A DNA stretch of 64,000 nucleotides, from contig WHUZ01000016.1 of assembly GCA_015179045.1 (NCBI GenBank), positions 372,001 through 436,000 of the forward strand. The letters are read 5' to 3'. Below are positions 18,273-53,036 of this stretch, piece by piece. Each line of letters opens with the position of its first letter. The first letter of the stretch is position 1. Below the pieces are notes generated by a model that did not search any database, had not been told where the DNA came from, and was given only the letters and a program-made list of their open reading frames with translations. This stretch comes from Kalaharituber pfeilii. Its lineage: Eukaryota > Ascomycota > Pezizomycetes > Pezizales > Pezizaceae. A program made the translations under genes and the position numbers.

Positions 18273-18394
18273 GCATCTACGGCCATAGACTGAAGAAAAC
18301 GAGGCATCCCGTCCGCTCTGCCATATCTAAGCTTCAGATCGCCAAGCTAGTACTACGGTGGGTGACCACGTGGGAATCCTTGGTGCTGTAGGTA
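18273..18394 (+). rRNA. 5S ribosomal RNA gene
   Basis: About 121 nt starting at ATCTACGGCCATAGAC and ending GTGCTGTAGGTAT. The ends pair as helix I (ATCTAC with GTAGGT). The 5S signatures CCCGTCCGCTCTGCC, AGCTAGTACTACGGTGGGTG and ACCACGTGGGAATCC are present in order. A T-run terminator follows directly. It stands alone and not in a tandem array, as in many Pezizomycotina. Its last ~44 nt recur at 55946-55989, again just upstream of a recombinase gene copy. Confidence 0.92.
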
Positions 18395-18398
18395 TAAC

Positions 18399-18412
18399 TT
18401 TTTTTTTTTTTT
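18399..18412 (+). terminator. RNA polymerase III T-run after 5S
   Basis: Fourteen T residues start five bases after the 5S 3' end; the usual Pol III terminator. Confidence 0.8.
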
Positions 18413-18623
18413 GTTTCTAACCCAGATCCTCCTCAATCAAAGCAGTAATATACGTTAAAGAAATAACTTGCTGTTCAGATTTTGGACCCTAGGGATCAAG
18501 TTATGGATCTTGCCAATTAGGGAACATAAGGTTTGCCAAGTTCCATAAGGCAAGGGTGCCTCAAGGCTAAACTAACTCTGGTAATTCCTACTCAGAAGCA
18601 GTAGCGACTTCCTTCAGTACAGC

Positions 18624-18688
18624 TTTTTTTTTTTTTTTTTTTTTTTATATCACATGACCCCGCTTGTAGCTGTTCGCCATGGCAGGGC
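18624..18688 (-). mobile_element. LINE-A hairpin-only insertion with empty-site proof
   Basis: Poly(T) of 22, then atatcacatgaccccgcttg and the A hairpin. Target duplication cttcagtacagc on both sides (18612-18623, 18689-18700). The paralogous copy at 56222-56245 reads cttccttcagcacagccaat with no insert, which is a direct empty site. Confidence 0.92.
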
Positions 18689-19513
18689 CTTCAGTACAGC
18701 TAATGAGGATTTGGGCCGATAATTATAACTATATCAGAAACTTGTATATATACCTCTAAAGCCCCCGTTGCTGCTATACTCTTGCCCTAGACTCTACAGT
18801 TCTTTCTGCCAAACCTCCTCTTCTTGCTTTCTCTGCTCGTGTCTCCTGACTCTACACACTTTCTTTCCTGCTTCGGTGCAATTCTAATTTATATCCTTCC
18901 CTTTACATTCTCAACAAATGGCTCAGCAAAAAGAGAAGTATCGCCAAATGGTCCAAGCCCTAGACTTGTGTGAGCTTGATGCCCCTATTAAAATTTACCG
19001 GTTCACCTACAGAACATAAAATTGCCGGCGCAGATAGAGCTTTTGGCAAATTTTGCGACGAAGTCTTCCATGCAGGGTCTGACTTCATAAATGAAGGATA
19101 CATCATTCTGTATTTGCGATCGAAGTTGGATGAGGGAAATCAGTTTCAGACCGTCGTTAACAATTTTGCTGAGCTACGAATGTTTTGTCGGAAGAGGTAT
19201 AAAGCTGTATTCCCTTCCGACAAGAAAAAGCGGATCGATAATTATATGGAGCTGTGTAAAGGTTCACGCATCAAAGAGTATGACATGGCAGCTGGGACAA
19301 TTACTAGCAGCTCCAGACCGCTGCCGACTAGCATCCAGAATTTGAAAGCTAAGCTGCTGCTCGATGCGAGCGATTTGGTTAACCTTTTAACATTTCATTG
19401 GATACAATCAACCATTCAATATCCAATACCTCGTTACCGTGTCCAGTTACCACTCATTATGCAAATTCTAGCCTATACAAGATCTCGCCCTGGAGCAGTA
19501 ATCGAATCGAGTG

Positions 19514-19940
19514 TGTCACGGGCCTACCCAGAGATGCTGGGGATATCCACCTGAGTTGACCCGTAAGGCTGCTAGTGACCATTCGGCCTGATCAACCGAT
19601 AGCTACAGCAGGGCAATACAATTGACAGGTCGGGTCACGGAAGCGTATCACAAGCGGAGCACATGGTTGAGTGAGTTGCGCCACTGAGTGGCAAGAGTAC
19701 GCGTAGGCTTGTTGTGCACAGCCTCAGACATTGTTATTGATTGTTAAGCATTGATACCGATTGTTAAGCATTGATATCGATTGTTAAGCATAGATAGCAT
19801 AAGCAATAGAACATACAGTGGGCATGCGCGGGGAGCTGGCTATATAAGGAGGGTCTTCTGCCTTCGAGAGATGGTCAAGCTTCAAGCGTTGTCCTAAGTT
19901 ACACCCTCACTTTAGCTAAATCATCGTAGACTCCGTAACA
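19514..19940 (+). repeat. solo LTR (Gypsy G2 family), 427 bp
   Basis: TGTCACGGGCCTACCC ... CTCCGTAACA with a perfect 5-bp duplication GAGTG at 19509-19513 and 19941-19945. Copy 2 of the recombinase gene (about 57035) reads atcgagtggttacc, the uninterrupted site. Inside are three copies of a unit built on attgttaagcattgat (19735-19795) and a TATA box ctatataagg. The block AAGCGTTGTCCTAAGTTACA is shared with the LTR at 6140-6392. Confidence 0.92.
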
Positions 19941-20871
19941 GAGTGGTTACCGCAAGACCAATCAGGCAATGACATATCGGGACGTTGATTTGACTTTACA
20001 GAGAGATAATGCTGGAAAACAGCGATGGACTATCCAATACCATAGCCGGCTTTGGAAATATCAAAGACATACGGAGCAGTACGTACTGGTTTCGGTGACG
20101 TTTAGAATATAAACTGACTATATACAGACTTAGCTTTACTCTCAACGCCCTTCCAGAAACACCTCTCCTCTGTCCTGTTCTGTTGACGCTTGCCCTCGCA
20201 TTTGATGATTATGCATTTAAAGTCCCCGACATGACTCCTACGAAGCTACTAGGGCTAAAAGTAAGCCAAGCTATCTATATTCCACTATCAATAATGCTAA
20301 TTCTAAACAGATAGTCAAGGAAGCTCGAACATCACTGCATGTTGAGTGGAAAGAGTCAATGTTGGACGTCCCCATCTTTCGAAAAATGCAAACAAACCGA
20401 GTTTTATCTCCAAAGAGAGCACTTGACTATAATACTGCTCAAGAACATGTAAAACATCTTGGCGAGGCATTTGGCTTTCGGGGACCAATCACTTTTTATT
20501 GCTCGAGAAGAGGTGCTGCAAATGCTATAGACAGTACGTTTTTTTATAACACCACTGTTGTGTAAGCATTGCTGACTATGTATCTAGAGGATTCTACTGA
20601 AGCATAAAGACTTCACATTATGGGCCACATGTTACGGCTAAGGTGAGACTTACTCGATAAGAGGAACACTTACCCTGAACCATTAGTAAGACCAATGCTG
20701 ATAGAGCGGACTGATCACCCGTTAGGCTTTGCAGAAGGTTCTTTGTCTTTCGAATAGGGTAGTGCTAAGGAAGTGTGTGTCATTGTTTATGGTAAGGTCT
20801 TCGGACCTCTAAGGCACTCAGTTTATGAAGCTAATATGCGCACATGCATTAGTAGATATCAGTATCTTGCG

Positions 20872-21610
20872 CAGTGTTCCCAACCGGCCAGGCCGCCGAC
20901 CAGGCCGTCCAGGCCGCCCAGGCTGGTCCAGGCCGGTCCAGGCCGCCCAGGCCGTCCAGGCCATTCAGGCCGTTCAACCAATTTCAGGGGCAGGAGGGCT
21001 GGTTACGAGGCTATTTCAGGGGCCACCTTCAGGTTACTTGGACACGGATTTAATATGAACCTTTCAATATTTTCGGAAAACTATCTAGACTTTTTTTTTA
21101 TTGAGCAGCGCTTTTCGCAGGTATTCAGGTAAGTAATTTTTTTTTGTATCGCTTGACTATATACTAATTTCTTATTAGTATTGCAGGGAGACAGACATTC
21201 CAACCACCGGTACTGGCGATGATGATTCCTTTAGTATTCTCCTATTCTTCACTCTCCATAGTGCAGTTCAAGTGTTGACCTTGCATCGACGATTCCCTGC
21301 AGTCCAATCTGATGCCGATATCGAGTCTTCTGGAATTTGGGTTACAAAAATCTGGTGCGACAAAGTTGGATTTGACACTATGGTGAAGATGTGCATGGCT
21401 AATGGAAAGCGATACTGGCGGTGTAAAATCAGCAAGCAAAATCCTAAACATTAGAGAATGAGGTATACGTAGAATTCAGAGTACGTTCTGTATATAGCTA
21501 GCTACTGTATAACTTAACTCACACTGCAGCCTGAATGGCCTAGATTTCTATGGCCCAGGCCGGCCAGGCCATACCCTTGGCCTGGCCTGGCCGGCCCGTT
21601 GGGAACACTG
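20872..21610 (+). mobile_element. hAT-like element with GGCC-rich ends and a coding remnant
   Basis: Ends CAGTGTTCCCAAC and GTTGGGAACACTG. The directly flanking words agtatcttgcg and agattcttgcg (9 of 11 identical) look like a target duplication. Next to each end are runs of CAGGCCG/GGCCTGGCC repeats (20883-20980, 21557-21600). In the middle, an intron with GTAAGT donor and TTATTAG acceptor (about 21131-21180) leads into an exon. It reads ESSGIWVTKIWCDKVGFDTM ... GKRYWRCKISKQNPKH* (stop 21454), resembling the W...RC N-terminal BED-finger part of fungal hAT transposases with one Cys missing. The transposase core is absent. Confidence 0.65.
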
Positions 21611-21651
21611 AGATTCTTGCGTCTGTACTATTTTTGCATGTTTCTGCTACG

Positions 21652-22831
21652 TGTACCTGTTACTGTAGTTCACCACTTTCCCGGACACCCCACTTTCCCG
21701 GACACATTTACCACCAAAACTGCGCAACTTTCGCACTCAATATCTCAACAACCATAACAGCATTTGTGAACGCGCTTTGTATAGCTATTAGGCAAAGTGT
21801 AATTCTTGCTATCTAGCACTTTTTCTTCATCAAAAATTGTGGGTGCAAAGGGATTATGGCTTGTCGCATTTTTGTTGGAAGGCTTGGCATTTATTTGTAT
21901 GGGATCTCCATACAAAACGTTCATAAGACTTGAATATAGTCCTACTCTTCAACGCTAATTACAATAGCTATGATAGTATATGTCCAGAATCACCTGAAGA
22001 GTTATAGTAAGGTGCTGCATTTAGTTTACTTTCATTTGTTGAATTGTAGAGTTGGTGTACAACTATCTACTTTTGGGTGTGTTTCTCATACAAATGGTTT
22101 CTATGGGAAATATGAATATTGTGAATGATTTCACAACCACTACAGGTATTACCTAACTACGTTGCTCATAGTTTCCAACTGAGTGATCCTATTGAATGTG
22201 AGGGTCTGAGTTTTTTTCATGAATTGATTGCATGTGTAGCATGCAGAATTCGGGGGCGGTGACATTTGTATGGAGATCCCATACAAATAAATGCCAAGCC
22301 TTCCAACAAAAATGCGACAAGCCATAATCCCTTTGCACCCACAATTTTTGATGAAGAAAAAGTGCTAGATAGCAAGAATTACACTTTGCCTAATAGCTAT
22401 ACAAAGCGCGTTCACAAATGCTGTTATGGTTGTTGAGATATTGAATGCGAAAGTTGCGCAGTTTTGGTGGTAAATGTGTCCGGGAAAGTGGTGAACTACA
22501 GTAACACATATATTGGCATTAATAAGGAATTGCCACGTTGTCAGTCATTTGTTCATTTGTTGACTAGTCATGTATGACTGCGCTTAAGTCTATATAAGCG
22601 CTGGCTGGCGATAGCATAGTTAAAGGAATCAAGACACTAGCGGTGTTCTAAGTTTCTCTATAGACTCTGAAACCTATCGTTTCCTTATTGCGCCCGTGAA
22701 CTGCTGCGCTCCGCTGCGCTCCGCTGCGCGCCCCACGCCGAATAGCTGCCCTCCGGTCCGCCGTATATACCCCTTAGCCGTAACACCTAGCTTCCGGGCC
22801 CAGCGTAGCCGAGCCCCTCACGCCCGTAACA
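21652..22831 (+). repeat. solo LTR carrying a nested foldback element
   Basis: TGTACCTGT ... GCCCGTAACA, with ctacg before and ctaca after (4 of 5 identical). A TATA box (ctatataagc, near 22593) is followed by GCGGTGTTCTAAGTTTC, an analogue of the block in the two other LTRs of this family. The 839-bp element at 21663-22501 is inserted near its left end. The direct repeat gctccgctgc is present near 22700. Confidence 0.6.
21663..22501. mobile_element. pogo-like foldback element, ~250-bp inverted arms
   Basis: TA on both sides (21661-21662, 22502-22503). The left arm starts CTGTAGTTCACCACTTTCCC; the right arm is its inverse. The arms match over about 250 bp (21663-21916 and 22254-22501), with one extra 17-bp duplication (ccactttcccggacacc) in the left arm. 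The central 340 bp shows no transposase. The CCCGGACA word in the ends is usual for pogo/Fot1-type elements. Confidence 0.88.
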
Positions 22832-23525
22832 CTACAAAGGAACACAAGTTTTTCAGGCCTATACTTCACAAACATCAACCGTTGATACTCAGGCTGCTTT
22901 TCATGGAACAGCTCCCGAGCAGAGCCTACTTAATAGAGCATCAGCTATGGGTCTATAGTGGGATAAGCGAGCTGTATTTTATGTTAAGAAAACAACAATT
23001 AATGAGCTCCGCAAGTCGGATACTAAACTTCAGTTATTAACCCAGAAGAAAGATACGGCTTTGGCTCGATATCGACAGAATCGGGATTCTAGGAGGTATA
23101 AGGATTATACGCGGGCTTGCAATGCAGTTTCCACAAGAGTACGGAGTCTACGAAGAAAAGCGGAAAAAGAGCAACTGGAGGTCTTCTTCCTGAATGTGAA
23201 CTCGCACGATATTACAAAGCAGCTGGGCATAGACAAGGAAAAACAAGATGAAGCAGAATCGGTAACTGCAATGTATAGCTGGCATGGGATTTTTCGAGAA
23301 GGCTGGTATCATAATATTCTTCAAGGATTAGTCCAGTACCTTGAGGAGGGGAAGAGGCGGGAAGGGAGAGGCAAAGCATGAGCAATAAAAGGATAACGCC
23401 AAGTAAATCGAACTCCTCTGTCAATTAACCAATGACCTGAGGAAAGCGGAGGAAAAAGTGAGCAAACTGGACTTTGAAACATTTTTAGCCTTGGACCATC
23501 ATCTACGATGGGTGCATCAGATATC

Positions 23526-24326
23526 TTTTTTTTTTTTTTTTTTTTATTTCATTGATCGCATGCCGCCCTAAGGGCTATGGCGATGTATATGAGTTAACTA
23601 AAAGAAAGAAAATACGCAGCCTAAGTACATGGTATTTGAGTCGGGGTCCCGAGCCTGTCTATTCCCTTCTTCTGTTTGGCTCGTATTCCTCCGATCTCAG
23701 CCACTTCCCCCCAAGTTTGACTCTCCCAATCTCCACTCTTGTCTTCGTATACAACACTATGGAGCTTGCCTTCTTTCCTTCTTCTTCCAGTGTCGTTTTT
23801 CGTCGCAGCCATCTGATGCCCGTGGTCGTCTTTCCTAGCTCTTTATTGTCCTCTTCCAGCCATTTCCTGACTTTCTCCAAATCCTTTCTGAGTGCAACGC
23901 CATGAATGACGATGCCTTTCGTGGTTCGGGGAGAGGGTCGGCTGGTGTGCCTGGTCTGATTGCGGGGGCGGGATGGTGCAGGGGCGGGTGTCGAGTCAGG
24001 GGTTGGTGTGGGGTTCGGTGCTGGTGTTGCGGGGGTTGGGGGAACCTCCCGTTCTTCGACCGTGAGGGGGGTTTTTCCTACTCTCTTTGTCTTTTTCCTC
24101 CTCGGATTTGTCTTCTTCGTGGTCGAAGTTGCTGGTGGGGCCTTCTCGGGGACGGGTTCCTCCGAGAGTAGCTGGTAGGAGTGGAAGCTTAGGGGTTCCG
24201 GTGTTGTCTCCTCTGGTGGAGTATCCACGCACGTGATGGGGCTAAGCCCCAGTGGCTTTGTCTGTGGCTCAATGGCCGGGATGTCTATGTGCACGATGGG
24301 GCTGAGCCCCAGTGGCTGTTGTGGCG
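23526..24326 (-). mobile_element. LINE-B derivative: ORF1 joined to 3' hairpin (801 bp)
   Basis: Minus strand: about 220 codons of a gag-like ORF1. It has proline-rich repeats (PLGLSPIVHIDIPAIEPQ, twice), a basic stretch (TTKKTNPRRKKTKRVGK), PTPAPSRPRNQTR, and the conserved IVIHGVALRKDLEKVRKWL ... GIRWLRRKTTLEEEGKKASS, ending YEPNRRRE*. The expected CCHC knuckles and all of ORF2 are missing. The tail CGCCATAGCCCTTAGGGCGG, GCGATCAATGAAAT and poly(A) follow. Target duplication gcatcagatatc at 23514-23525 and 24327-24338. It interrupts the 3' part of the recombinase region. Confidence 0.87.
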
Positions 24327-24338
24327 GCATCAGATATC

Positions 24339-24618
24339 GGATCGTGGGAAATATTGTTTCGGATCCTCATCTGTTCTTCCAGAAACCGTTTTTCAAAGGG
24401 GAACTTCCGCATATGTGCAAGATATCTCAAATGAGAAGCCAACTTTTGAAGCATATTCCACGTCCCCAAAAGATGCGGTAGAATGGTTTCGCTGTGCACC
24501 CGCCGTATTTGAGGGACATGCCAACGTCAAAGTCGAATTCAATGGCGAGCCGAAAATGAACCGTTTGACAGCATTTGTGCTTCTCGGTATATATAATCTA
24601 ATAATACTCTTTTTGTAA
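24339..24618 (+). pseudogene. unknown exon fragment
   Basis: After the LINE derivative is removed, a frame reads LPETVFQRGTSAYVQDISNE ... DAVEWFRCAPAVFEGHANVK ... NGEPKMNRLTAFVLLG, then a GTATATATAATC donor-like word at about 24588. Composition is protein-like. It may be an upstream exon of the EST1-like gene or an unrelated exon. No family is recognised. Confidence 0.35.
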
Positions 24619-24734
24619 ATTTTTTTTTTTTTTTTTTAAAAAATTCTCTTTATAGAATTAAAACTTTCTTGAGGAATAACAGATGACACCTTCATTATCT
24701 GTATATTTCCCTGTCATAGGCCGGCTGGTAGCCT

Positions 24735-24735
<1 letters not shown>

Positions 24736-24806
<71 letters not shown>

Positions 24807-24849
24807 TATTTCACGTGACCCCGCATGCAGCTGTTCGCCATGGCAGGGC
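24736..24849 (-). mobile_element. LINE-A hairpin-only insertion with 70-base poly(T)
   Basis: An uninterrupted T-run of about 70 (24736-24805) followed by gtatttcacgtgacc and the A hairpin ending ggcagggc. No target duplication is visible; a 13-bp direct repeat (gtggagaggtt) follows instead. The very long homopolymer suggests a recent insertion, or two insertions at one site. Confidence 0.8.
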
Positions 24850-25017
24850 GTGTGGAGAGGTTATGTGGAGAGGTTTTGTAAGGGAAAATTGGTATCTGAT
24901 TTCATGTAACGTTAAGGCCAGGACACAGCAAGAATTCCAGGGAGCTAATGGCCCAGTATCATAATCATACACTAGTATTTCACACATATCAATATCACCA
25001 AACCTCTATTGTTTAAT

Positions 25018-26296
25018 ATAGTGGACCCTAACGAGACAATTCATAATGACCAACTTGTCGAGCCAAATCCATCACCTTGTATGCAACCTTTCGCGCTTCT
25101 AAAGACTTAAGAAAAAACAAATGTGGCGTAGAACCCCCTTCCTGTAGATGTCATAACGCTTTACAAATTTGCTGGCACTATCAACCACATCCCTCCCCCA
25201 TTCCAGCGAACACCCAATGGCATGCTATATGGTTCACCGGTATCAATTTCGACGATTTCTATGGAATTTTGGATGAGTACGTCAGCTTGTTGGACAAGCA
25301 CATTAGCAGGGTTGGCGAAGAGTGGACAGTTCAAGGTTGCCTAGTTGCCGTGTGCAGTATTGCTGCCTTATATCAATACAACACTCGCGAAAGTACACTC
25401 AGGCAGGCTTGGAAGGAAGCCAGGACCGTTGTGAAGGAAGAAGAGGCAAATAAGGTGCCCGCTCAAATTCCAGAACAAGGAACTGGTAACGAGTATGATA
25501 ACCCCCTTCCTCGAGAGACAAACTCAGAACACGCTAGCTCCTGGGTCCCATTGGATTACGCGATTAAGATGGGATTTGAAATCTTCAATCTGGTACTGCA
25601 GCGCATTGATAATAGTTACATATTACCCCATGTACATAGTTGGTTGGCGTTCCTATATCATATCAAGGATTCTATCCCGACAATTCACCTGCTCGAGAAC
25701 GACCTCCCCTGGGATAGCCTGGTCGTGCTTCTCAATTCACTAATTAAGTCAGAACTGGCTTCCTCGAGTTATATTGATTCAAGTCTCAACTTTGCCACAT
25801 TCCCTCGAGGGTAAAATCGCCCTCTTCCAGAGGATTGGACTCTTCGTGGTCTTGAGTGGACTAACAATTATTTCCCCCAAGGCTGGATTGAAGAGGCAAA
25901 AGTTGATGATGAGGAGCAGTTATTGGAGCTTTCTTCATTTGTGGCTTTGAGGAAACAGCGTATCCTGTGGCTTGCATACAAGCTAGTTGAGGTAGGTTTA
26001 GAGAACCCTCTCATTTATCAAAGTTGTTTACTTATGTAACTAGGGTGGTGATTAGTTGAACTACGACACTGCTAGTGAGCGCTTCTCTGTACATCCCGCC
26101 GTGCTTGAGAGAATCAGATGCAACCGAAGAGTAGCACAGATCAAGCAGGAGGGTATGGCAACCATGAAGGAACAACAGGAATCAGATATTGAGATGGACT
26201 ACACTGTTGCCACACCTGTTGAAGAGGACATCGGCGAGTTTGAAGACCTTGCTGAGCAATCTGAGGTACTGCAGCAGCTCCCTGCGTTCAAACTCG
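25018..26296 (+). pseudogene. EST1-like (DNA/RNA-binding domain) gene, copy 1
   Basis: An acceptor-like AATATAG is followed by GTGGACCCTAACGAGAC, shared with 47126. The frame from 25077 contains FDDFYGILDEYVSLLDKHIS, LQRIDNSYILPHVHSWLAFL, ENDLPWDSLVVLLNSLIK, then TFPRG and a stop (25812-25814). It continues in frame with NRPLPEDWTLRGLEWTNNYF, PQGWIEEAKVDDEEQLLELS and ALRKQRILWLAYKLVE. An intron (GTAGGT...ACTAG, about 25991-26043) and an exon with ERFSVHPAVLERI follow. This series matches the EST1 DNA/RNA-binding domain of fungal EST1/SMG7-like proteins (telomerase and nonsense-mediated decay). Copy 2 has CAA where this one has the TAA stop. Another stop lies at 26053-26055. Confidence 0.7.
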
Positions 26297-26637
26297 GGAT
26301 GTCGAAAAGGATTGGAAAAATAACGTGGAGAACGGGGAGGAATGGGAGGAATGGGATGGGCTGGAAAGGTTTTTTTCCTTCATCAGGTATTAAGAAAGGC
26401 GGGATCAAGGGACGGCGGCGGGATCAAAGGATAGAGGGAGTGTTGCGAATTATTTAGGTCTTTGGTTAGAGAGTGAGTTCACAAGCTTGGCACTGCACTA
26501 AATAACTCAAAGGGGGGTAAAACTAAACCTAAAAAAGGGGGGGGGGAAATTGAAAAGGCTGCTTAGTAATCGTAAAGCGAAATGTTACGTTATGCTAGTA
26601 CTAAGTTGCCTGCACTATACAAGCAGGGTTATGTGAT

Positions 26638-26682
<45 letters not shown>
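26297..26682 (+). mobile_element. LINE-A 3' segment with ORF end and poly(A)
   Basis: The frame DVEKDWKNNVENGEEWEEWD, GLERFFSFIRY* matches AENGEEWDELERFFSGIRF* at the start of the LINE-A copy at 29792. After about 250 bp it ends with CCTGCACTATACAAGCAGGG, TTATGTGATTATT and poly(A) of 41. The hairpin stem here is CCTGC/GCAGG, where most A copies have CCCTGC/GCGGGG. The left border with the EST1-like sequence is uncertain, since both parts also occur together at 59234-59640. Confidence 0.65.
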
Positions 26683-26685
<3 letters not shown>

Positions 26686-28265
26686 CGTTGAAAACTCCAC
26701 TCGCATCATTTCTGCCTGGAGTTTACCCTGATGCAGTCGTATTGTACTCATGCTATATGTAGTTGCAGCATGAGGACTCAGTGTATATAAAATATTTTTA
26801 AGCAATGTGAGGAACTCTATTCTTGCTTGATCTTCTAACTCATCAATTGCGTCAATGCAAATAAATATGATGTCAAGCTTTTGTACCAGCTCTTGCAACG
26901 TAGTTATTGCGTCAGCAAGTTCCAGCTTTGTATAAGCCTTTCGAGCAGATTCAAAATTCTTTACCAGCATATCAGGCAAGGGTTGAGAGGTGGACATTAA
27001 TTCCCGCACCAATTGCTTCAGCAGGCTGCCAACTAGATGTATAGGAACTTGCTCTTTTTGGTCTCGATAATCACAGTAGAGATAGATTGTAGCTGCTCTT
27101 GGTTGCCTAACAGCAAGAGATAAATGATCAATGACAACAGACCTTCCAGAATTGTTAGCAACCCTGCACGTGTTCTTTATTCACTTTTTTTTTTTTTTTT
27201 TTTTTTATATCAATACTCGCGTGCCGCCCTATGGGCTATGGTCTTTATTCACTATATAGCGAAATTGTCATATACACTACTAGATATACATACGTAATCA
27301 CTGTTTTCCCAGCACCAGGCATTCCGTAGCAGCCTAGAATATGTGAAGTTTTAATATCACCGTCCCGCCAGGACATGAATTGGTCTGTGTGAAGAATCCA
27401 AGTTGTTGTGTTTGCAAGGCGCCTAGATCTGATATCCTGATGTCTTTTCCGTGGCTCAAGTGGGGACAACCATGCCAGGAGCTTTTCCATATTGTCCTCT
27501 GAGAAAGTAATAAGTATAGATGCCGGTGCAAGTATCAGAGATCCGAATAAAATGGTCCCTACCATCCATGTTGAGCTGCAACCTTTGCACACCACGTTTG
27601 ATCTGATGCACATCGACAGCCAATTGATCAAGTATCGAAACGAAGCTCAAGATCTCGCCAAGTGTAGCACTCATTTTAGACATCTCAGCTGGTATAGCAG
27701 GGAACAAGGACATGACGGAGTCTATTTGCTGCTTTTGCTGCGACAAGCCGGTCATAACTTCGCGCGAAGTCTTGGAAAGAAGTTCACTGTTTTTGACTTA
27801 GTCGTCTATATAGAAATGGGTAGGAGATTTTGGAAAATACCAATTCGCAATAGTAAGCGAAAATTCGATCGTTTGGGTGCAGCGATGCAATGTCTGCACT
27901 ACCTCAATGCAATCTTGTTTTTTGAAAGGCCATTTCAATCGGTCACTGAATCCTCCTGATACTTTTCCCCCTGACATTTGAAACTTGACTAGTATCGAGT
28001 GAAGACTTTCAATCTTGCTTTTACAGATCGCAATGACGACACAAAGAGCAGAAGTTTCCCGAAAATTCCCCTTGACATCCTCCTCCCTCAGGAACCCAAT
28101 CAGCTGGTCAAGGGTACAACTTAGTGCATTAATCTCAGCAAGTAAATCATAAGCATCCTTCGGAGCAGACTTGACCTGACCCGTATATTCTGTCAGGATT
28201 TTCGCAAGCTCAATGGCTAAAGAGAGGAAACCAGCGACTCCGGTGGAAATGGAAAAGGGGTCCAT
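26683..28265 (-). pseudogene. NACHT-domain NLR (STAND) gene, truncated
   Basis: Exon 1, 28265-27841: MDPFSISTGVAGFLSLAIEL ... QTIEFSLTIAN, the fungal NACHT N-terminal domain. Intron 27840-27787; exon 2, 27786-27563 (CELLSKTSREVMTGLSQQKQ...). Intron 27562-27499; exon 3, 27498-27294, with EDNMEKLLAWLSPLEPRKRH and the P-loop GCYGMPGAGKT. Intron 3, 27293-27164, enlarged by a LINE-B hairpin. Exon 4 from 27163 has RAATIYLYCDYRDQKEQVPI and the Walker B-like IIFICIDAIDELED. All four exons join in phase. Exon 4 ends abruptly at the LINE-A poly(A) (26682) after MMRVEFST, so the rest of NACHT and any sensor repeats are lost. Fungal NLRs act in non-self recognition and cell death. It lies tail-to-tail with the EST1-like gene. 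Confidence 0.85.
27186..27241 (-). mobile_element. LINE-B hairpin-only insertion in NLR intron 3
   Basis: Minus-strand ACCATAGCCCATAGGGCGGC, GCGAGTATTGATAT and poly(A) of about 22. Target duplication tctttattcact at 27174-27185 and 27242-27253. It lies wholly inside intron 3, which would be about 62 nt without it. Confidence 0.88.
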
Positions 28266-31495: not shown

Positions 31496-31695
31496 GAATC
31501 AATCACGCTGGATATGTAACTCTCTGGTTACGATAGGACAGTTCTACTGAACATCTGTGCTCTCCGTTCCATAAAACGCGGCGGGTGCACCTCTCTTATT
31601 GTGATACTTCCACATTCAACCAGACATTTCTCAGTCTCATCATAAGTCTACCTTTCTGAACAAACTTTCCCCTTGTAACGTTTATTTCCCTCAAA

Positions 31696-32626
31696 ATGTC
31701 CTCTGTCAAGCTCCACACCTGGCAGGAACGGAACCCCGATAACACCCCCATCCACAAGACCCAAACCATCCAATCGCAGCTTCCCCTCCCCAGCTTCGCC
31801 TTCGCCCTCACCGGCATCGACGCCACTCCCGCACCCATCGTCCAACTTTCGGCCTCCGCCGCATGGGTTCAAGAAAACTGCTCCCCAGCATTCGATGCTA
31901 TTCTTGATTCGGGCTCCGACCCCATGAAAACCGCAAGCTGTAACTTCCTCGAAATTTCCGCAAACCATCCGGTGCTTCGCACCGGAACTTACAACATTAC
32001 TGGCCCGCTCACCGGTACGAAGGAAATTCCAATCGAATTCCCGGAACCCTTCACGACAAAGGCGAAAGTAATCGTGTTCGTGAACAGTATTCAATTTCAA
32101 GGGGATCATGACTACAACATTTGGCTCGATGCGACTAATGTAACTGAGAACGGGTTCCACATAAAGGTGGAGCTATGGACTGATGAGGTCATATTGGGGT
32201 TGGACGTGACGTGGATTGCGTATCCGGAGGGAACCCCAGGTATCACCAGTGGTTACGTCAACACAAATCAATTCAGAACGATTAGGGACGACCCGACGCA
32301 GCATGATAATGCGTGGTATGAGTCACTAGTCGGACAGGTTGGTCACCACCCATCCATATCGTACCGTTTACAACATCCATGTAGCCCTCCCTATATTCAA
32401 CATGGATACTAATATATCTCTTAAACTATATTAGGATTTTCAAACAACTCCCACAATCTTCTTTGGTTTCAACAGCTTCAAATTTGGAACTGGCAGGAAC
32501 CTCAGGGTCCAGTCGATGATATGGAAGTCCGATCAATATGGGTTCTTGTGGGGTGCAAATACTTCAGGTGATACATTGATGTATCGGATTTACCTGGGAT
32601 ATGTGGCTTTTGATCCTAGTATTTGA
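31696..32626 (+). CDS. H-type lectin domain protein, two exons
   Basis: Exon 1 is 31696-32337 (214 codons) and exon 2 is 32435-32626. The intron (97 nt) has GTTGGT at the donor, a CTAATATA branch and TATTAG acceptor; the junction is phase 0, giving 277 residues. Residues about 115-185 hold a complete H-type lectin motif: EPFTTKAKVIVFVNSIQF, then IWLDATNVTENGFHIKVELW and LGLDVTWIAYPEG. Exon 2 encodes a second one: TPTIFFGFNSFKFGTGRNLR, DQYGFLWGANTSGDTLMYRI, YLGYVAFDPSI*. Residues 20-90 may be a third, weaker unit. There is no signal peptide. H-type lectins bind galactose/GalNAc-type glycans; fungal cytoplasmic lectins of this kind are often linked to defence or fruiting. The gene is intact and insertion-free. 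Confidence 0.85.
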
Positions 32627-46523: not shown

Positions 46524-47040
46524 ATGCGATAGGCAGAGGGAGGTGGCGCAGAACCAGTTAGCTTCCGGGATTCACTCCATATGCCATGAACATTTTAGAA
46601 TTTTGATTTTGATATCCTTCAGAGATCTCCGGCCAAGTACTTGTCTTGTTTCAGGTCATTGATCAGTTGGATGGGACATGTGATGTAGAGAACTGTGATA
46701 GAACTATGATTCTGTGCCGTAATCGATATGCACCTGCTGTGCCATAATCGATATGCACCTTCTGTGCCATATTGATATGCATTAGCAATACTACAATAAC
46801 AAAAACCTAAAACCTAAAAATGATCATGGACATGTAACGAACTACTAGGTATGTGTAACAAACGTGTAACCAACTCCTAGGTGCTACAGCTTGTGTTTGT
46901 AGCTTCCCGTGTTCGTAGCTTCTCAATAGCTTTTGTTCGTGCCTTCTCAGGGTGTTATGCATTGATAAATAGCAGGGCCTTCACCTGTTCGGCCGCAATC
47001 CAAAAGAACAGACCTTAAGATACCTCCCTACCTCTCCAAA
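46524..47040. other. divergent intergenic region with short repeats
   Basis: Three units of tgtgccataatcgatatgca lie at about 46713-46780. Near 46963 gataaatagcagggcct matches gataaatagcaggacct near 52957, which also leads a plus-strand gene. I read it as the promoter side of the gene at 47041. Confidence 0.5.
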
Positions 47041-47072
47041 TTGTTACCTACAGTCACTCTAACGAGCGCAGA

Positions 47073-47400
47073 GTATGTACATGTCAACTTTAGCTGCTCC
47101 GAACTTAAGTTACTAACTTTTATAGTAGACCCTAACGAGACAATTCATAATGGCCAATGTGTCAAGCCAAATCCATCCGATGATGTGCCAATCTATTTGG
47201 TTGTTCCAATTTATTTGGAGGTCGACTCGGGTAGATTTCCAATTTATTTCGAGACCGACTCAGATTTTGTTCCAGTCTATATGCACACCAACTCAGTTTT
47301 TTGCCCAATTTATTTGGAGGCCGACCCAGATATTGTTCCAATCTATATGCACACCAACTCGGATATTGTTCTCTCTTTAGACCAGATGGAGCAGCCATAG
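47073..47400 (+). CDS. tandem-repeat ORF behind a canonical intron
   Basis: An intron 47073-47125 (GTATGT ... TTACTAACTTTTATAG) precedes a frame reading DPNETIHNGQCVKPNPSDD. A tandem repeat VPIYMHTNSD / VPIYLEADPD (15-16 residues, about five units) follows, with stop at 47400. No ATG was found in the frame-compatible first exon, so the gene model is incomplete. The first exon-2 segment (ccctaacgagacaattcata) also occurs at 25021 at the start of the EST1-like locus. Confidence 0.4.
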
Positions 47401-47424
47401 CAGCCACTAGTTAGAACTAGTCCT

Positions 47425-47710
47425 CAATTGTTTTTTTTTTTTTTTTTTTTTTTTTTGTCTTTATACTCTTTTGTTTTATACGCGATTATCTATAATTGTT
47501 GACTATACTGATCGGCAATGAATTTGTGTTCTTACGTTCACCTCTCTAGCCCTCTCTCTGATATTTTCCCTTTTTTTTTTTTTTTTTGTCTTTACACTCT
47601 TTGGTTTTTTTATAGCCTCGATTACTTCCTATAATTGTTGTGCTCAGCCCTGTTTGACCATACTGATCTGCAATGATTTTGTGTTCTTACGTTCACTTCT
47701 CTATGAACAT
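47425..47710. repeat. ~140-bp tandem duplication with T-runs
   Basis: Two units each start with a T-run and ttttgtctttaYactctttg; both end in ttgtgttcttacgttcac. The second leads into the gene at 47784. Confidence 0.7.
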
Positions 47711-47783
47711 TTGTATCTATAAATCGGGCCCTTCCACAATACCATTCTCCACAATCACTTATATCGCCAACCACAAAGTACCA

Positions 47784-48470
47784 ATGTCCACTCCACTCGT
47801 TAACTCCAAGTCGTGCTTAATCTCCCTTGATGGAGACTCAACAGACTCAACGTCCTCTGACGATGTAACTTCGGCCTCTCACGCAACTTTACTCGTTAAC
47901 CCCAGCCATAATGGAGACAACCCCTCATCATCCTCAGCTGTTCCCTCGGCTCCTCCTTCTAGGATTCCCTTGTTACCACCAGAGGTAACTTCGGCCTCTC
48001 ACGCTACGTTACTCGTTAACCCCAGCCATAATGGAGGCAACCCCTCATCATCCTCAGCTGTTCCCTCGGCTCCTCCTTCTAGGATTCCCTTGTTACCACC
48101 AGAACGCATAATCCTTCTTACCCTCATATTCCTTCGTACCTATTATCCAAACCTTTACAACCTTTATTACTCAGGTACAACTGAAGAGGATGAGCTTCAA
48201 TACTATTATAACTCGGATACTACTGAAGAGGATGGGCTTCAAGACTATTATAACTTGGATACAACTGAGGAGGATGAGCCTCAGTCCAAAAAGCAGCGAA
48301 ACGTAGAAGACGAGAGACCTATCGTACAGCGGCAGCACGGAGGGGAGCCTCAGTCCGAGGGAAAGCAAAAGGTAGAAGACGAAGGACCTATCGCAAAGCG
48401 ACTTCGTAGTGCTAGGAACCAGAAGCCAAAGCAGGGCGGAGGCGAAGCGACATGGAGCGGGCAAAGGTAG
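47784..48470 (+). CDS. acidic repeat protein, 228 aa
   Basis: ATG 47784 (MSTPLVNSKSCLISLDGDS). Residues about 30-110 are two near-identical 38-residue repeats (VTSASHATLLVNPSHNGDNP ... PSRIPLLPPE). A hydrophobic stretch (IILLTLIFLRTYYPNLYNLY) follows, then three repeats of YYNSDTTEEDGLQD type. A basic end with KKQRNVEDERPI and AKRLRSARNQKPK is nuclear-signal-like. It ends at 48470. The C-terminus resembles a fragment at 54090 (APKRLRNAGKWMTVIEEI). Family unknown; duplicated locus. Confidence 0.5.
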   Translation: MSTPLVNSKSCLISLDGDSTDSTSSDDVTSASHATLLVNPSHNGDNPSSSSAVPSAPPSRIPLLPPEVTSASHATLLVNPSHNGGNPSSSSAVPSAPPSRIPLLPPERIILLTLIFLRTYYPNLYNLYYSGTTEEDELQYYYNSDTTEEDGLQDYYNLDTTEEDEPQSKKQRNVEDERPIVQRQHGGEPQSEGKQKVEDEGPIAKRLRSARNQKPKQGGGEATWSGQR

Positions 48471-48652
48471 AAGACGTAGTTAGGACTTTATTTATTTTTT
48501 CTTTGTATAGCTCATCTCACAGTGCATGAGTATTTCCTATGTTGTGCAAGTAATTACTGGCCTATTCGCACTAGTATGTCTCAGTTTTGCAACCAGGGTC
48601 CAAATACGGGTCCTGGTACCCAAAAACGGGTCCTATTATGATATAGGCACAA

Positions 48653-48660
48653 GTATAAAT
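48653..48660 (+). promoter_or_regulatory. TATA-like element of the secreted-protein gene
   Basis: gtataaat, about 155 bp before the ATG at 48811. Related upstream blocks (ccaaatacgggtccY, then caagYRYaaaaatct) recur at 50130, 50480 and 54345 before the relics of the same gene. Confidence 0.5.
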
Positions 48661-48810
48661 TCACATTATACATAAACAAGTACTCCATGGAGTCGAGAAT
48701 ACTAGGGCACTCTCGTAACTAGGTCTCCTAGCGCATTACGGGATATATCCAGAATACGTGGGCATCTACTTATTCTACCTATCAATACCAATACCAGTTT
48801 TAAATCTACA

Positions 48811-49434
48811 ATGCAATCAGTGATATTTATCATTTTTCTTAGTCTTTTCTCAAGTGTCGTAGTCCCTTTTGAACTTCCTCCCCCAAATTATCAACATGCT
48901 GGCATCCAAAAGGACGATATCCAATACACAGACTTTGGTCGTCTGAGCTGCGACGGGCCTAGTGAGGCTGTATTCACCAATGCAACACTGCTCACGTTGA
49001 CACAGCGGACACACCTTCGATTCTATTCGTATGGTACGGCTGGGATGCCTACGGAACCTTTCACGTTACTCCCGAATGGTACTTTCTCTACATGTTGTGC
49101 TCAAATTGGTTCAGGCTTCTATGTGAAAAATGTTGGCAAGGAGGACATCTTGCAACCTGATTCAGGCTTCATCTTTACAACTCTGTTCTATATATCTCAG
49201 AACTGCTATGACGGGGCCGGTACCATGAGATGGAGGCTGGGTGGTCCAAAGCCAGGAAAGAGTAGAGATCGAGTAGAGATCAAGACATTCTTCAATAATA
49301 CTAAGCTCACGGAAGAGCTGGCAGCTGGAGGGACAGAGTTTTTTTTCGATGTGTGCGGTAACTGGACAGATTTACTCAAAGATGTATGGGGCCGGGCGTT
49401 AAAGCAAAACCAGACTCTGAAAATAGAGTTTTAA
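48811..49434 (+). CDS. small secreted protein, 207 aa
   Basis: ATG 48811 begins a clear signal peptide (MQSVIFIIFLSLFSSVVVPF). The mature part has several N-glycosylation sites (NATL, NGTF, NNTK, NWTD, NQTL) and six cysteines (RLSCDGP, STCCAQ, QNCYDG, FDVCGN). It is intact, single-exon, ending LKIEF*. No known domain; composition and length suit an apoplastic or wall-associated effector-like protein. At least three degenerate relatives lie downstream (about 50220, 50690, 54440). Confidence 0.75.
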   Translation: MQSVIFIIFLSLFSSVVVPFELPPPNYQHAGIQKDDIQYTDFGRLSCDGPSEAVFTNATLLTLTQRTHLRFYSYGTAGMPTEPFTLLPNGTFSTCCAQIGSGFYVKNVGKEDILQPDSGFIFTTLFYISQNCYDGAGTMRWRLGGPKPGKSRDRVEIKTFFNNTKLTEELAAGGTEFFFDVCGNWTDLLKDVWGRALKQNQTLKIEF

Positions 49435-49559
49435 AGTAAAGGGTTTGGTGTGTTAGGAAAGCAGAAGCTTCACTAGTGCGAGTTGGATGCTCAGAGGGGA
49501 TCAAGGGCTGGACTAGGGACATGAGAGGTGGACCAATATCATTATAGCTAAAGATAATA

Positions 49560-50290
49560 ACCTCCAGCTTAAAGACGGTAGTTAGGACTTGAATTTATTA
49601 CTTAACTCTTATTCGTACTCAAAGTTCCATAATATAGTATGCTATGTAAGGTGAAAACGAGACTTTGCGAAGACATTCCTCACTTGAGAGCAAAAATAAC
49701 AAACGCGCACTACGTCGGTCATGGCAAGCCTCTTAGCGCTAGTGCGCGTGTATTACCAAGTAGGCACGAGTACGGAGTACGCATTACTGATCCCCACATT
49801 ACCGCGATGCTAAGAATAGAGATGTGCTTAGTAATGCCAAGATTGAAGCAACAGCGCACTAACGCGCTCCAAAAAGACTTCGTAATGCTGGTAAATGAAT
49901 GACTGTGATTAGGAGGAAATTAACCACGGGGGACCAGTGTCCCAGGATCGATCAAGAATAGTTAGGACTTGAATTCATTTTTATTATAAGTGGGTGAAGG
50001 GGAGATGGTGCGATCCTGTACCTAACTAGAGAGAGCGACCACAAGATAATTTTTCAAATTTGGACATTCTAATGAGGCAATTACTGCCCTATCGGTACTA
50101 GCATGTCTTGGCTTCAAAGAATCCAAATACGGGTCCCTAGCACCCAATTATGATGCAAGCCCAGTTAAAAATCTATCAATTCCTTACTACTTACCTATCA
50201 TCCTTCATCTTTTATCCCAAGCGCTGTGTTTGCTTTCGAAATGTTTCGCTCAGAAAATTGCATTTATGCACTATGTCGCTAGAATAAAAA
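49560..50290 (+). pseudogene. degenerate duplicate of secreted-protein locus
   Basis: Contains agttaggacttgaattcatt (49961) and an upstream block nearly identical to 54185-54435. It then holds ccaagcgctgtgtttgcttt (50218), matching the signal-peptide end of the relic at 54486, and breaks off. At 49863-49910 it also holds gctccaaaaagacttcgtaa, shared with 54090. Confidence 0.55.
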
Positions 50291-50456
50291 GTAATAGTAT
50301 AACTGGTCAGTTTGTCCGGACACTTCAATGCCTTTAATGCTATGATACCTCTCCTTAAAAAAATAAAGCGGCTTGTTACTCTACTAATCTATATAGGGTA
50401 GTAGCCACCACATTTGGCGTTGCTTTCCAATTTTCGGATTTTAAGATTACCATAGT

Positions 50457-50920
50457 ATGTTTTGGCTTCAAGAGTCCGAATACAGGTCCCTAGGTCAAAA
50501 ATCGATACTGAGCCAAAGTATAAATCTCACTTTGGTGCTATTTTACCTATCATACAAATCAACACCAGTATATCATACCTATCGATACCGTACAAACCAA
50601 AATCATAGCATACCATTCATCCTTACCTATGATGCAAACAGAGATTCTTATTATCTTTTCACAAGCGTTCTATTCCCTTTTGAAATTCCTCACCTAGATC
50701 TTGAACATTTTGGTATCCAAAAAGACGATAAAACGATCGATCAAAAAATTGACTATATTCAAATGTATTGTACCGGGCACCACTCTGGTACTAAACCCAA
50801 ACCACATGAGTGGTCCGAACAGGGATAAACTAGAGATTCGGACCTTTCAGGATCGAAACCTCATGGAAGAACTGGAGGCTAGGGGGCCGGACTTTTTTTT
50901 TCGATGCGTGCAGTAAGAAT
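50457..50920 (+). pseudogene. secreted-protein paralogue, decayed
   Basis: The upstream block is followed by FPFEIPHLDLEHFGIQKDD (compare VPFELPPPNYQHAGIQKDD in the intact gene). After a gap and frameshift, SGPNRDKLEIRTFQDRNLME, ELEARGPDFFF matches the intact gene's C-terminal third. The middle is deleted. Confidence 0.75.
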
Positions 50921-51286
50921 GCATCCGATATTATATTGGGCAGGAGACCAAGTACAACTAGACTATTAAAGCGCCGTGAAGGAGCAAAAGGAAGTCGATA
51001 AAGAAGAAAAGACCAGGATGAGCTGGGCTGAGAAACAAAGGCTGGGCAAGGGGGATCTGCTACATAAAGAATAAAAAGTTTCAAAAATTAATGCCGCTAT
51101 GTGGACCCCCTGTTTTGAGAAATAAAGAGTCAAGAACTAACAATATATTAACAGCACAGATAAATAACTATAACCATCAAAAAATTGCAACCAGTAAAAT
51201 CTAACAATATAATTAATAACACAGTTTTGGCCAACTTAGTCCAGCTGCCGAAAATCATATGAACCGATAATCTGATCGATATGCAG
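50921..51286. other. no gene recognised
   Basis: AT-rich spacer between converging genes. Confidence 0.45.
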
Positions 51287-51817
51287 TTAAAAATGTGGTG
51301 GAGGACTTCCGGGACCAGCAGAATCATGGGCGTCAGTTAAATCAATTCTTTTGACAGGTGCTTCTCCCTCTATGAGATCAATAACAGCCCGACGACGTCT
51401 TGCATCCAAAGCATCATTGTGTCTACTCATGAGATCAACAACATCTGGTCTCCTGGTACGTCTCCTGGTATGTCTATGTCTTCGCCCTAGGGGACTAGAG
51501 GGACTAGAGGGACTACTAACTGGCTGGAGTCGTCGAACTCGGTCTTGCCGTGGGGCTGCTGTAATCCCTCGATCCTTTCTACCTCTCCTGCGCAATGGAG
51601 TGGAGGGACCGGCATTCTGATGGGTGTCAATAACAACCGGTCCACGTTCATCATCTTGGTTCGTGAGATCAATGATTAAAGGGTCGTCATCTCCGTTCAT
51701 GAGATCAATGATCAAAGCGCCCGCACTGGCAGCTAGCACAGAGTGGACCGGGGGTGCAAGGTCATTTGTAAGGTCCAGAATTTCGGGTACAGGAGTAGTT
51801 GCAACTGAACGAGGCAT
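51287..51817 (-). CDS. SUMO-interaction-motif array protein, 176 aa
   Basis: First ATG in frame at 51817 (MPRSVATTPVPEILDLTND). SIM-type cores, hydrophobic runs next to acidic or Ser residues, are EILDLTND (12-19), LIIDLMNGDDD (35-45), LIIDLTNQDDE (47-57), PVVIDT (60-65), DVVDLMS (125-131), AVIDLIEGE (144-152) and RIDLTDA (157-163). Between them lies a strongly basic region (residues 75-125) with RRRGRKDR and RRHRHTRRRTRR. No RING finger is seen. Arrays of SIMs bind poly-SUMO in SUMO-targeted ubiquitin ligases (Slx5/RNF4 type). Here the basic stretch suggests a nuclear or DNA-associated protein. A TATA box and CT-rich leader stand upstream. Confidence 0.65.
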   Translation of the reverse strand: MPRSVATTPVPEILDLTNDLAPPVHSVLAASAGALIIDLMNGDDDPLIIDLTNQDDERGPVVIDTHQNAGPSTPLRRRGRKDRGITAAPRQDRVRRLQPVSSPSSPSSPLGRRHRHTRRRTRRPDVVDLMSRHNDALDARRRRAVIDLIEGEAPVKRIDLTDAHDSAGPGSPPPHF

Positions 51818-52056
51818 ATTTGGAAGAAGATATAGTGGAGGTGTATTAAGCAGGATTTGACAAAATGGTGAGGAGGAAGACACAATCGAAGAGGGGAGGT
51901 AGCGGAGAAAGAAGAATCTAGCAAGGGTTGAGAGGAGTTGAGCAAAGGCAAAATCAGAGAGGAGGGATCAAGCAAAGAGTCGAGAAGAGCTGAGCAAAGA
52001 GAAAATCAAGAGAGGAGGGACAGAATGAAGAGAGAAGAAAGGAGCAGAGAGCAACC

Positions 52057-52066
52057 CTTATATAGG
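52057..52066 (-). promoter_or_regulatory. TATA box of the SIM-array gene
   Basis: CCTATATAAG on the minus strand, 240 bp before the ATG, followed by a pyrimidine-rich leader. The same word opens the truncated paralogue at 46092-46102. Confidence 0.65.
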
Positions 52067-52068
52067 AA

Positions 52069-52317
52069 TTATCTCTTTCGTCGTTTGGAGGGTCCAATGT
52101 CAACTTCAGTTCCCCTGGTTCTTCCCAATTTATTATTAGAATTAGGAACCCTAAGTTCGCACCCGCCAAACTCTTTGTCTAATCCCATGTTATGAATCAT
52201 TTCCACAACAGAAAATGGTGAACCACTAATGTTCGTAGAAATTCCATCTGTTCCTGCGAGCATACTGCAAGTCATTGAATCTCTTGTAAGTGTGTTCGTA
52301 TGTGTCGAAGTGTTCAA
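52069..52317 (-). pseudogene. paralogue of the 46053-46523 gene, shortened
   Basis: Reads TDGISTNISGSPFSVVEMIH, NMGLDKEFGGCELRVPNSNN, KLGRTRGTEVDIGPSKRRKR*; about 60% identical by eye to the end of the cassette-1 gene. Its N-terminal part is replaced by repeat units of the array at 52320-52950. Confidence 0.5.
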
Positions 52318-52950
52318 AGTCTGAAAATAGCCATAGCCACTTTTTTTTTTTTTTTTTTTTTTTCACGTGACTCCGCTTGTAGCTGTTCACCATGGCAGGG
52401 CGGGCCATAGCCACTAATGTTCGTAAGTGTCGATGTGTTCATAGCCTGAAAATAGCCATAGCCACTAATGTTCATAGAAATTGCCTCTGTTCCTGCGAGC
52501 ATCGTTGAATCTCGTGTAGGTGTGTTCGTATGTGCCGAAGTGTTCATAGTCTGAAAAAGCCATAGCCACTAATGTTCGTAGAACTTCCCTCCGTTCCTGT
52601 GAGTTGAGCCTGAAAATAGCCATAGCCACTAATGTTCGTAGAAATTCCCTCTGTTCCTGGAGCATACTGCAGGTCGTATCATGAGATCCATTACCTCACA
52701 CTCCAAACATCTAGCATGCTGAATCTTTTGCAGGGGTATTCGTATGTGTCAAACCCGAAAATAGCCATAGCCACTAATGTTCATAAGTGTCGAAGTATTT
52801 ATAGCCTGAAAATAGCCATAGCCACTAATGTTTATAGAAATTGCCTCTGTTCCTGCGAGCACACTGCCAGTCGTTGAATCTCTTGTAGGTGTATTCGTAT
52901 GTGTCGAAGTGTTCAAAGTCTGAAAATAGGGATAGTCTGAAAGTAGGGAT
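52318..52950. repeat. tandem array of a gene-end fragment
   Basis: Five to six imperfect units containing aatagccatagccactaatg and gtagaaattgcctctgttcc, plus tgcgagcat and gtgttcgtatgtgYcgaagt. On the minus strand each encodes the motif AGTEAISMNISGYGYF, so the array amplifies the end of the 52069-52317 frame. A LINE-A hairpin sits in it. Confidence 0.8.
52341..52403 (-). mobile_element. LINE-A hairpin-only insertion
   Basis: Poly(T) of 22, cacgtgactccgcttgtagc, tgttcaccatggcagggcgg; target duplication gccatagccac at 52330-52340 and 52404-52414. Confidence 0.9.
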
Positions 52951-53029
52951 AACCTGATAAATAGCAGGACCTCTGCTCACTATCAGCAATAACTTCAGCA
53001 ATAACTCAGCCAAGCTATCATTCTACTCC

Positions 53030-53036
53030 ATATAAA
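53030..53036 (+). promoter_or_regulatory. TATA-like element
   Basis: atataaa, 85 bp before the ATG at 53121. Confidence 0.5.

What the first reader, a model, noticed from the sequence alone, without database searches (positions are those of the whole stretch)
18273..28265. 5S rRNA gene - DUF3435 recombinase - EST1-like - NACHT series, repeated at 55946-61708
Seen: the order 5S sequence, tyrosine recombinase, EST1-like gene, NACHT sequence occurs twice on the same strand about 37 kb apart. Copy 2 is shrunken by deletions. Known: DUF3435 recombinases are the captains of fungal Starships, sit at the 5' end and drive cargo; NLR genes are frequent Starship cargo; at least one Starship (Voyager, from memory) was reported to insert in 5S genes. 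Inference: this is a decayed captain-driven element that uses 5S genes as landing sites and carried an EST1-like gene plus an NLR. An alternative is plain segmental duplication of a locus.
Basis: partly seen in the sequence, partly recalled or inferred. Interest (0 to 1): 0.92.

Follow-up and report, generated by a model that had tools for sequence, protein, structure and literature searches.

The report
Truffle giant transposon landing in 5S genes
In a desert-truffle genome, a decayed giant "Starship"-type mobile element appears to have landed inside 5S ribosomal RNA genes at one fixed position, and it may carry the end of the 5S gene with it so that the gene it hits stays whole and can be hit again.

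Summary
A complete 5S gene (18275-18394) stands 0.5 kb before a broken DUF3435 gene. "Copy 2" (55946-61707) matches copy 1 only in pieces (94.5% from 5S tail to captain). Its 5S is just nt 78-117; its "NACHT" is a 56-bp scrap, largely poly-A. Key finding: the DNA ending exactly at 55945 is an element right end. It recurs at C179 (93% over 7.7 kb aligned), abutting a different 5S tail that continues like an intact, empty paralogous 5S on C354; and, as ~140 bp, at two C112 sites, one with a recognisable 5S tail. So one right end sits in 5S near nt 78 at three sites. Most economical reading: one 37.6-kb element (18357-55945) stacked on an older one, its left end carrying the 5S 3' third and so restoring the gene. 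5S insertion is well supported; the single-element, 5S-restoring step is inferred. No second left end was found, and 5S#2 nearby shares 5S#1's flanks, so 5S#1 could be an unbroken native gene.

The parts
18275..18394 (+). complete 5S rRNA gene (5S#1)
   Evidence: Rfam RF00001 87.9 bits; nt 1-117 identical to the common 5S of the genome
18352..18356 (+). ACTAC, putative core / direct repeat (5S nt 78-82), beside the centre of the palindrome TAGT^ACTA
   Evidence: same bases at 55946-55950 next to the right end; role inferred
18918..23378 (+). captain A: DUF3435 tyrosine-recombinase gene, broken
   Evidence: PF11917 in three pieces; ATG at 18918 and a change of frame soon after it that copy 2 lacks; LTR and other inserts
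18624..18688 (+). short poly-T + LINE-tail-like insert with target duplication
   Evidence: flanked by CCTTCAGTACAG; absent from copy 2; LINE-like by eye
19514..19940 (+). 427-bp solo-LTR-like insert (TG..CA) with GAGTG target duplication inside captain A
   Evidence: 38 further places at 86-100% in the capped list; copy 2 is the empty site
20869..22510 (.). stretch interrupting captain A, absent beside the captain scrap on C179; holds inverted 227-bp arms
   Evidence: 20630-20868 and 22511-22779 lie about 51 bp apart on C179; arms 21690-21916 / 22265-22491
25050..26036 (+). EST1-like gene piece
   Evidence: relative P0002 with PF10373; no direct Pfam match
26632..28265 (-). NLR-type gene in pieces: PigL_N + NPHP3_N (NACHT-like)
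31660..32409 (+). H-type lectin domain ORF, candidate cargo
   Evidence: PF09458, 51.5 bits
36512..45209 (.). nested LTR-retrotransposon complex (Copia-like by eye), inverted 3.2-kb arms
   Evidence: self-alignment 93.5%; ORFs; family name recalled
46884..55945 (+). right part of element A, shared with C179
   Evidence: 93.0% over 7705 aligned bases
55804..55945 (+). conserved right terminus ending CTAGCNNNNCAA
   Evidence: four loci aligned: C68, C179, C112 x2; only this part is shared with C112
55946..55985 (+). orphan 5S tail, nt 78-117
   Evidence: 39 of 40 identical
56444..57319 (+). captain B remnant with in-frame stops, lacking its later part
59232..59647 (+). remnant matching the EST1-like gene and the DNA after it
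61652..61707 (.). 56-bp remnant matching the NLR 3' end (largely poly-A plus 29 other bases)

Best explanation
A decayed Starship-type (DUF3435-captain) element family of Kalaharituber pfeilii inserts site-specifically inside 5S rRNA genes at nt 78 (centre of TAGT^ACTA, core ACTA/ACTAC). Shown: its right end lies inside 5S genes. Inferred: element A is 18357-55945 (37.6 kb); its left end carries a copy of the 5S 3' third plus terminator, so that insertion joins host 5S nt 1-82 to the element-borne tail and leaves a whole 5S gene at the left and an orphan tail at the right. Because the gene is restored it can be hit again: A was inserted into (or arose by recombination at) the 5S in front of an older element B, giving the tandem series 5S - captain A - cargo - right end - 5S tail - captain B. 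The recombination itself would be done by the captain on a circular or excised form, as tyrosine recombinases do at tRNA genes in bacteria (recalled).
For: The right end stops at 55945 and recurs at C179:467000(-), where a different 5S tail follows. That tail is identical to the C354 5S over nt 83-117 (0 of 35 mismatches) and tail plus 3' flank align with C354 over 787 bp at 77%: a paralogous empty site. The query of the last 164 bp plus 15 of 5S gave 5 matches: C68, C179 and C112:2055.8k abut 5S tails (0, 0 and 8 of 2000 shuffles as good), C112:741.5k is not distinguishable (434 of 2000), and the fifth is an internal 62-bp scrap without the end. C112 shares only the terminal ~140 bp in 11.7 kb read at each place, as expected of a cis-acting end. 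Captain A starts 561 bp from the proposed left junction and reads inward. C:G to T:A changes are 43 towards copy 2 against 21 towards copy 1 (p 0.008): B is more decayed. Divergences are alike: A/B 5.5%, C68/C179 right parts 7.0%.
Against: No second copy of the left end was found outside C68. No 5S head was found in C179:462.5-512.0 kb, so no element is seen with both ends except by inference at C68. 5S#1 shares its 5' flank and its unusual 3' end (GTAGGTATAWC, T run) with 5S#2, 49 kb away; one search matched the flank nowhere else and none of the other 38 genes listed has that end: this suits an unbroken native gene as well as a restored one. The older element's own right end and the displaced native 5S tail were not found on C68. 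No inverted terminal repeat in a simple scan (best 14 of 20). The captain scrap on C179 is in the opposite orientation to the right end there. Orphan tails at C68 and C179 are hardly damaged (1 of 40, a base found at that place in 8 of the 40 genes; 0 of 35), so the intactness of the 5S#1 tail is no evidence of restoration.
Confidence: 0.55

Rival explanations
1. Two events. A 5S gene with a nearby solo DUF3435 gene was duplicated locally (copy 1, copy 2); later an element of the right-end family, whose left end has since been lost, inserted into the 5S of copy 2. The element does not carry a 5S tail and 5S#1 is simply native.
For: 5S genes are locally duplicated in this genome, including 5S#1/5S#2 with shared 5' flanks; 5S#1 looks native on both sides.
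Against: The 5S head and 5' flank of copy 2 should lie at the lost left end; apart from 5S#1 the window holds only a minus-strand 5S scrap at 10.9 kb, and the flank matched only 5S#1 and 5S#2. It needs an extra deletion and leaves the captain's presence between the two junctions unexplained.
Confidence: 0.3
2. The captain-bearing element begins just after the 5S terminator (about 18418), not inside the gene; it targets 5S flanks, and the right-end family is a different kind of element that targets 5S nt 78.
For: Similarity of 5S#1 and 5S#2 stops right after the T run.
Against: Two different 5S-directed elements would have to meet by chance in one 37-kb stretch; no junction at 18418 was found outside C68.
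Confidence: 0.1
3. Plain segmental duplication without any transposition.
For: Collinear pieces on one strand.
Against: The left breakpoint coincides with the end of a sequence that also abuts other 5S genes at other loci.
Confidence: 0.05

Closest known systems
Starships of the Osiris navis (Enterprise captain family), Aspergillus fumigatus (PMC12153272, passages seen)
   Same: captain element inserting in 5S rDNA coding sequence; local 5S-rich hotspot
   Different: there the insert is predicted to fragment the 5S gene; here a whole 5S gene stands at the captain side. Captain family here not assigned; the exact nt of the Osiris site was not seen
Voyager Starship (Gluck-Thaler 2022, not held; target AGAATACAGGGC as quoted in PMC10128009, passages seen)
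   Same: 5S-associated captain element (PMC10128009 says that Starships are reported to insert in 5S rDNA; that Voyager does is recalled)
   Different: its target word fits this 5S best at nt 20-31 with 9 of 12 bases, no better than chance (559 of 5000 shuffles as good), so its place in 5S is not settled here; here the site is nt 78
Bacterial integrative elements in tRNA genes (recalled)
   Same: tyrosine recombinase, structural-RNA target, element-borne 3' gene end that restores the gene, tandem stacking
   Different: bacterial; no common descent claimed

Membership tests
Starship superfamily | captain gene with DUF3435 tyrosine-recombinase domain | tested here: met
   PF11917 at 60.3 and 26.1 bits, over the 25.8 cut-off, in two of three pieces; gene broken
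Starship superfamily | captain is first gene at the 5' end, reading inward | tested here: inconclusive
   ATG 561 bp from the proposed junction, but the left boundary is inferred
Starship superfamily | flanking short direct repeats of a target | tested here: inconclusive
   ACTAC at 18352 and 55946; valid only if both belong to one element
Starship superfamily | same element end at two or more sites | tested here: met
   right end with 5S tail at C68, C179, C112:2055.8k; right end only
Starship superfamily | empty site known | tested here: met
   paralogous empty 5S on C354 for the right side at C179 only
Starship superfamily | presence/absence between strains | not testable with these tools
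   only one genome held
Starship superfamily | terminal inverted repeats (in 18 of 20 A. fumigatus elements, PMC12153272) | tested here: inconclusive
   ungapped scan of 18-56 kb with the last 20 bases: best 14 of 20; gapped or shorter repeats not tested
Starship superfamily | non-transposon cargo | tested here: met
   NLR pieces, H-lectin ORF, EST1-like piece, if the element is as proposed
5S-targeting Starships | inserted inside the 5S coding sequence | tested here: met
   right end at nt 78
5S-targeting Starships | 5S gene left fragmented | tested here: inconclusive
   fragmented on the right side; whole on the captain side, possibly restored
Enterprise captain family | captain groups with Enterprise captains | not tested
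   no reference captains at hand; one search returned no protein, one, the organism's own

The most novel reading that the evidence does not exclude
A eukaryotic giant element that carries the 3' third of its target gene: by putting back 5S nt 83-120 at every insertion it spares the host's 5S gene and keeps the landing site open, so elements stack in tandem, the same solution that bacterial islands reached at tRNA genes. It could help explain why 5S-rich hotspots persist under repeated Starship attack.
Probability: 0.48. Interest if true: 0.8.

Novelty: new variant of a known kind. Interest (0 to 1): 0.57.

Why it matters
5S-targeting Starships are described as breaking the gene they hit (PMC12153272, passages). 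If this lineage restores the gene, the cost to the host, the persistence of 5S hotspots and the tandem build-up of cargo become explicable and testable. It would also place a captain element, a defined right end and a precise 5S site in a truffle (Pezizomycetes). Two searches of the held library with Starship, Pezizomycetes, Kalaharituber, truffle, captain and transposable element as terms listed 15 of 99 and 10 of 151 papers; none of the titles listed is about such an element, which does not exclude one among the papers not listed or not held.

Tried and rejected
Segmental duplication alone: rejected by the right-end junctions elsewhere. Right end as a LINE end: it has no poly-A, and the seven ORF stretches of 46.9-55.9 kb that were scanned gave no reverse-transcriptase match (other ORFs there were not scanned). 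Left end at C179: 49.5 kb (462.5-512.0 kb) read without finding a 5S head; C354's 5' flank matched nothing on C179. C112 interiors: only the end is shared. Inverted terminal repeats: none in a simple scan. Voyager's target word in this 5S: chance level. RIP: 64 of 75 changes are transitions but without a clear CpA bias. LINE-broken 5S genes (L042, L043, L045) were first taken for further captain junctions and dropped when LINE-like sequence was seen there by eye. Captain relatives in other fungi: none found.
Full report
WHERE. The window is contig C68:372001-436000 of a 78-Mb, 360-contig genome. The captain's N-terminal ORF matches one protein record, Kalaharituber pfeilii BDZ91DRAFT_762893, on a contig of the same length, 921809: a desert truffle (recalled), Pezizomycetes.

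THE OBSERVATION. cmscan finds one 5S gene in the window at gathering score, 18275-18394; its nt 1-117 equal the common 5S of this genome. DUF3435 (PF11917) matches three ORF pieces downstream at 20.5, 60.3 and 26.1 bits, cut-off 25.8; in the genome the family has 2 matches at E <= 0.001, both here. The gene is broken: a change of frame soon after the ATG that copy 2 lacks, a 427-bp solo-LTR-like insert with GAGTG target duplication for which copy 2 is the empty site, and a 1.6-kb interruption. The NLR gene is on the minus strand (PigL_N 39.6 bits; NPHP3_N 35.2 and 53.9 bits). The EST1 label rests on one relative with PF10373; direct Pfam scans gave no EST1 match. Self-comparison confirms a collinear repeat: 18352-18623, 18688-19513, 19941-20222, 25746-25898, 26128-26218, 26296-26415, 26503-26567 and 26655-26710 recur in order at 55946-61707. 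Copy 2's 5S is only nt 78-117 and its NLR part only 56 bp, much of it poly-A.

THE RIGHT END. The repeat starts exactly at 5S nt 78. The sequence left of it (55000-55945) was searched in the genome without any 5S in the query: 10 matches, of which C179 (two overlapping) reaches the end, C112:741.5k comes within 7 bases of it, C112:2055.8k lies close to it, one is an inverted internal scrap on C68, one is itself, and four (C46 x3, C349) cover other parts. On C179 the match runs from window 46884 to 55945 (7705 aligned bases, 93.0%) and beyond the same last bases, CTAGCTGTTCAA, stands a different 5S tail. That tail equals the C354 5S gene over nt 83-117 (0 of 35 mismatches), and tail plus following DNA align to C354 over 787 bp at 77%. 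C354 is thus a paralogous 5S without the insert. Searching with the last 164 bp plus 15 of the 5S gave 5 matches: C68, C179, two on C112, and the internal 62-bp scrap at window 50358-50419. Of the four with the end (aligned), three are followed by a 5S tail better than nearly all shuffles (0, 0, 8 of 2000); C112:741.5k is not (434 of 2000). The C112 loci share only the terminal ~140 bp with C68 in the 11.7 kb read at each.

THE MODEL. One right end in several 5S genes at one position means site-specific insertion. In C68 the partner left end is best placed at the 5S#1 gene: captain A starts 561 bp from nt 83 of it and reads inward, and ACTAC stands at both junctions. The site is the centre of the palindrome TAGTACTA. 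If so, the element brings its own 5S nt 83-120 and terminator, and 5S#1 is a restored gene; the junction at 55945/55946 is right end - core - 5S tail - captain B, i.e. the older element B with A stacked before it. Copy 2 carries 43 C:G to T:A differences against 21 in copy 1 (p 0.008), as expected if B is older. Shown: right-end insertion in 5S, the captain remnants, the whole 5S at the left. Inferred: that the two ends belong to one element, that the tail is element-borne, that the captain does the work, the order of events.

WHAT SPEAKS AGAINST IT. The C68 genes 5S#1 and 5S#2 (window-equivalent 67655) share a 5' flank that one search matched nowhere else and an end, GTAGGTATAWC, seen in none of the other 38 genes listed. 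5S#1 could thus be a plain native gene with a captain beside it, duplicated together, with a separate element inserted in the second 5S and its left end lost. The restored-gene model must assume that the left arm was captured at this locus. No other left end was found: the 5S-to-captain DNA matched only C68 (its other matches are the LTR and short LINE-tail-like repeats inside the query), the captain N-terminus only C68 (3 matches, 1 itself and 2 overlapping in copy 2), and 49.5 kb of C179 gave no 5S head. No inverted terminal repeats were seen in a simple scan. The orphan tails at C68 and C179 are nearly undamaged, so a perfect tail in 5S#1 does not by itself argue for a restored, working gene.

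KNOWN KINDS. Passages of PMC12153272 say that Osiris Starships (Enterprise family) insert in 5S coding sequence and fragment it, and that one A. fumigatus hotspot holds six to eight intact 5S copies. Passages of PMC12134995 say that captain families differ in target, 5S among them, and that DUF3435 genes are often solo. Passages of PMC10128009 quote the Voyager target word. Against these the present family agrees in captain, 5S target and kind of cargo; it differs in the whole 5S at the captain side and possibly in the position hit. It is filed as a probable Starship; captain family not assigned.

VERDICT. Real, of mobile-element origin, 5S-targeted. The captain-driven, gene-restoring, tandem-stacking reading is the best supported of four (about 0.55) and can be settled by comparison of strains.

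Noticed in passing
whole genome, 40 Rfam 5S matches: 5S genes cluster: 7 same-contig pairs within 55 kb against a simulated mean of 1.1 (9 of 20000 simulations as many; uniform genome without contig ends), 6 of 7 in the same orientation, five of them 36-52 kb apart.
   Followed up: partly
L045 (C295:1454.9k), L042 (C295:1630.7k), L043 (C353:157.5k): LINE-like sequences (by eye) break three further 5S genes, two of them near the same nt 73-82 as the Starship site; L043 has a 13-bp target duplication at nt 54-66.
   Followed up: partly
10943-10983, minus strand: Scrap of a decayed 5S gene (nt 25-64 at 88%) 7 kb left of 5S#1: the locus has held several 5S copies.
   Followed up: no
1924, 3784, 18624, 24788, 30048, 52341, 58370 and other places: Very short repeats of about 60 bp, poly-T/A plus a LINE-3'-end-like stretch (by eye), the one at 18624 with a clear target duplication; a possible minimal SINE-like or dead-on-arrival LINE family.
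   Followed up: no
L060, L061, L064, L073 (C340 x2, C353, C304): Four 5S genes share 94-99% identical upstream flanks of about 700 bp, and each has a second 5S fragment, nt 19 to 68-70 at 84-85%, some 600-700 bp upstream.
   Followed up: no
L056, L079, L080 (C296, C38, C45): Near-identical 5S loci on three contigs, possibly unmerged haplotypes in the assembly.
   Followed up: no
48706-49434 and C179:473.9-475.0k: ORF without a Pfam match, conserved at 89-95% in both element copies, with further related pieces nearby: the best-kept cargo candidate seen.
   Followed up: partly
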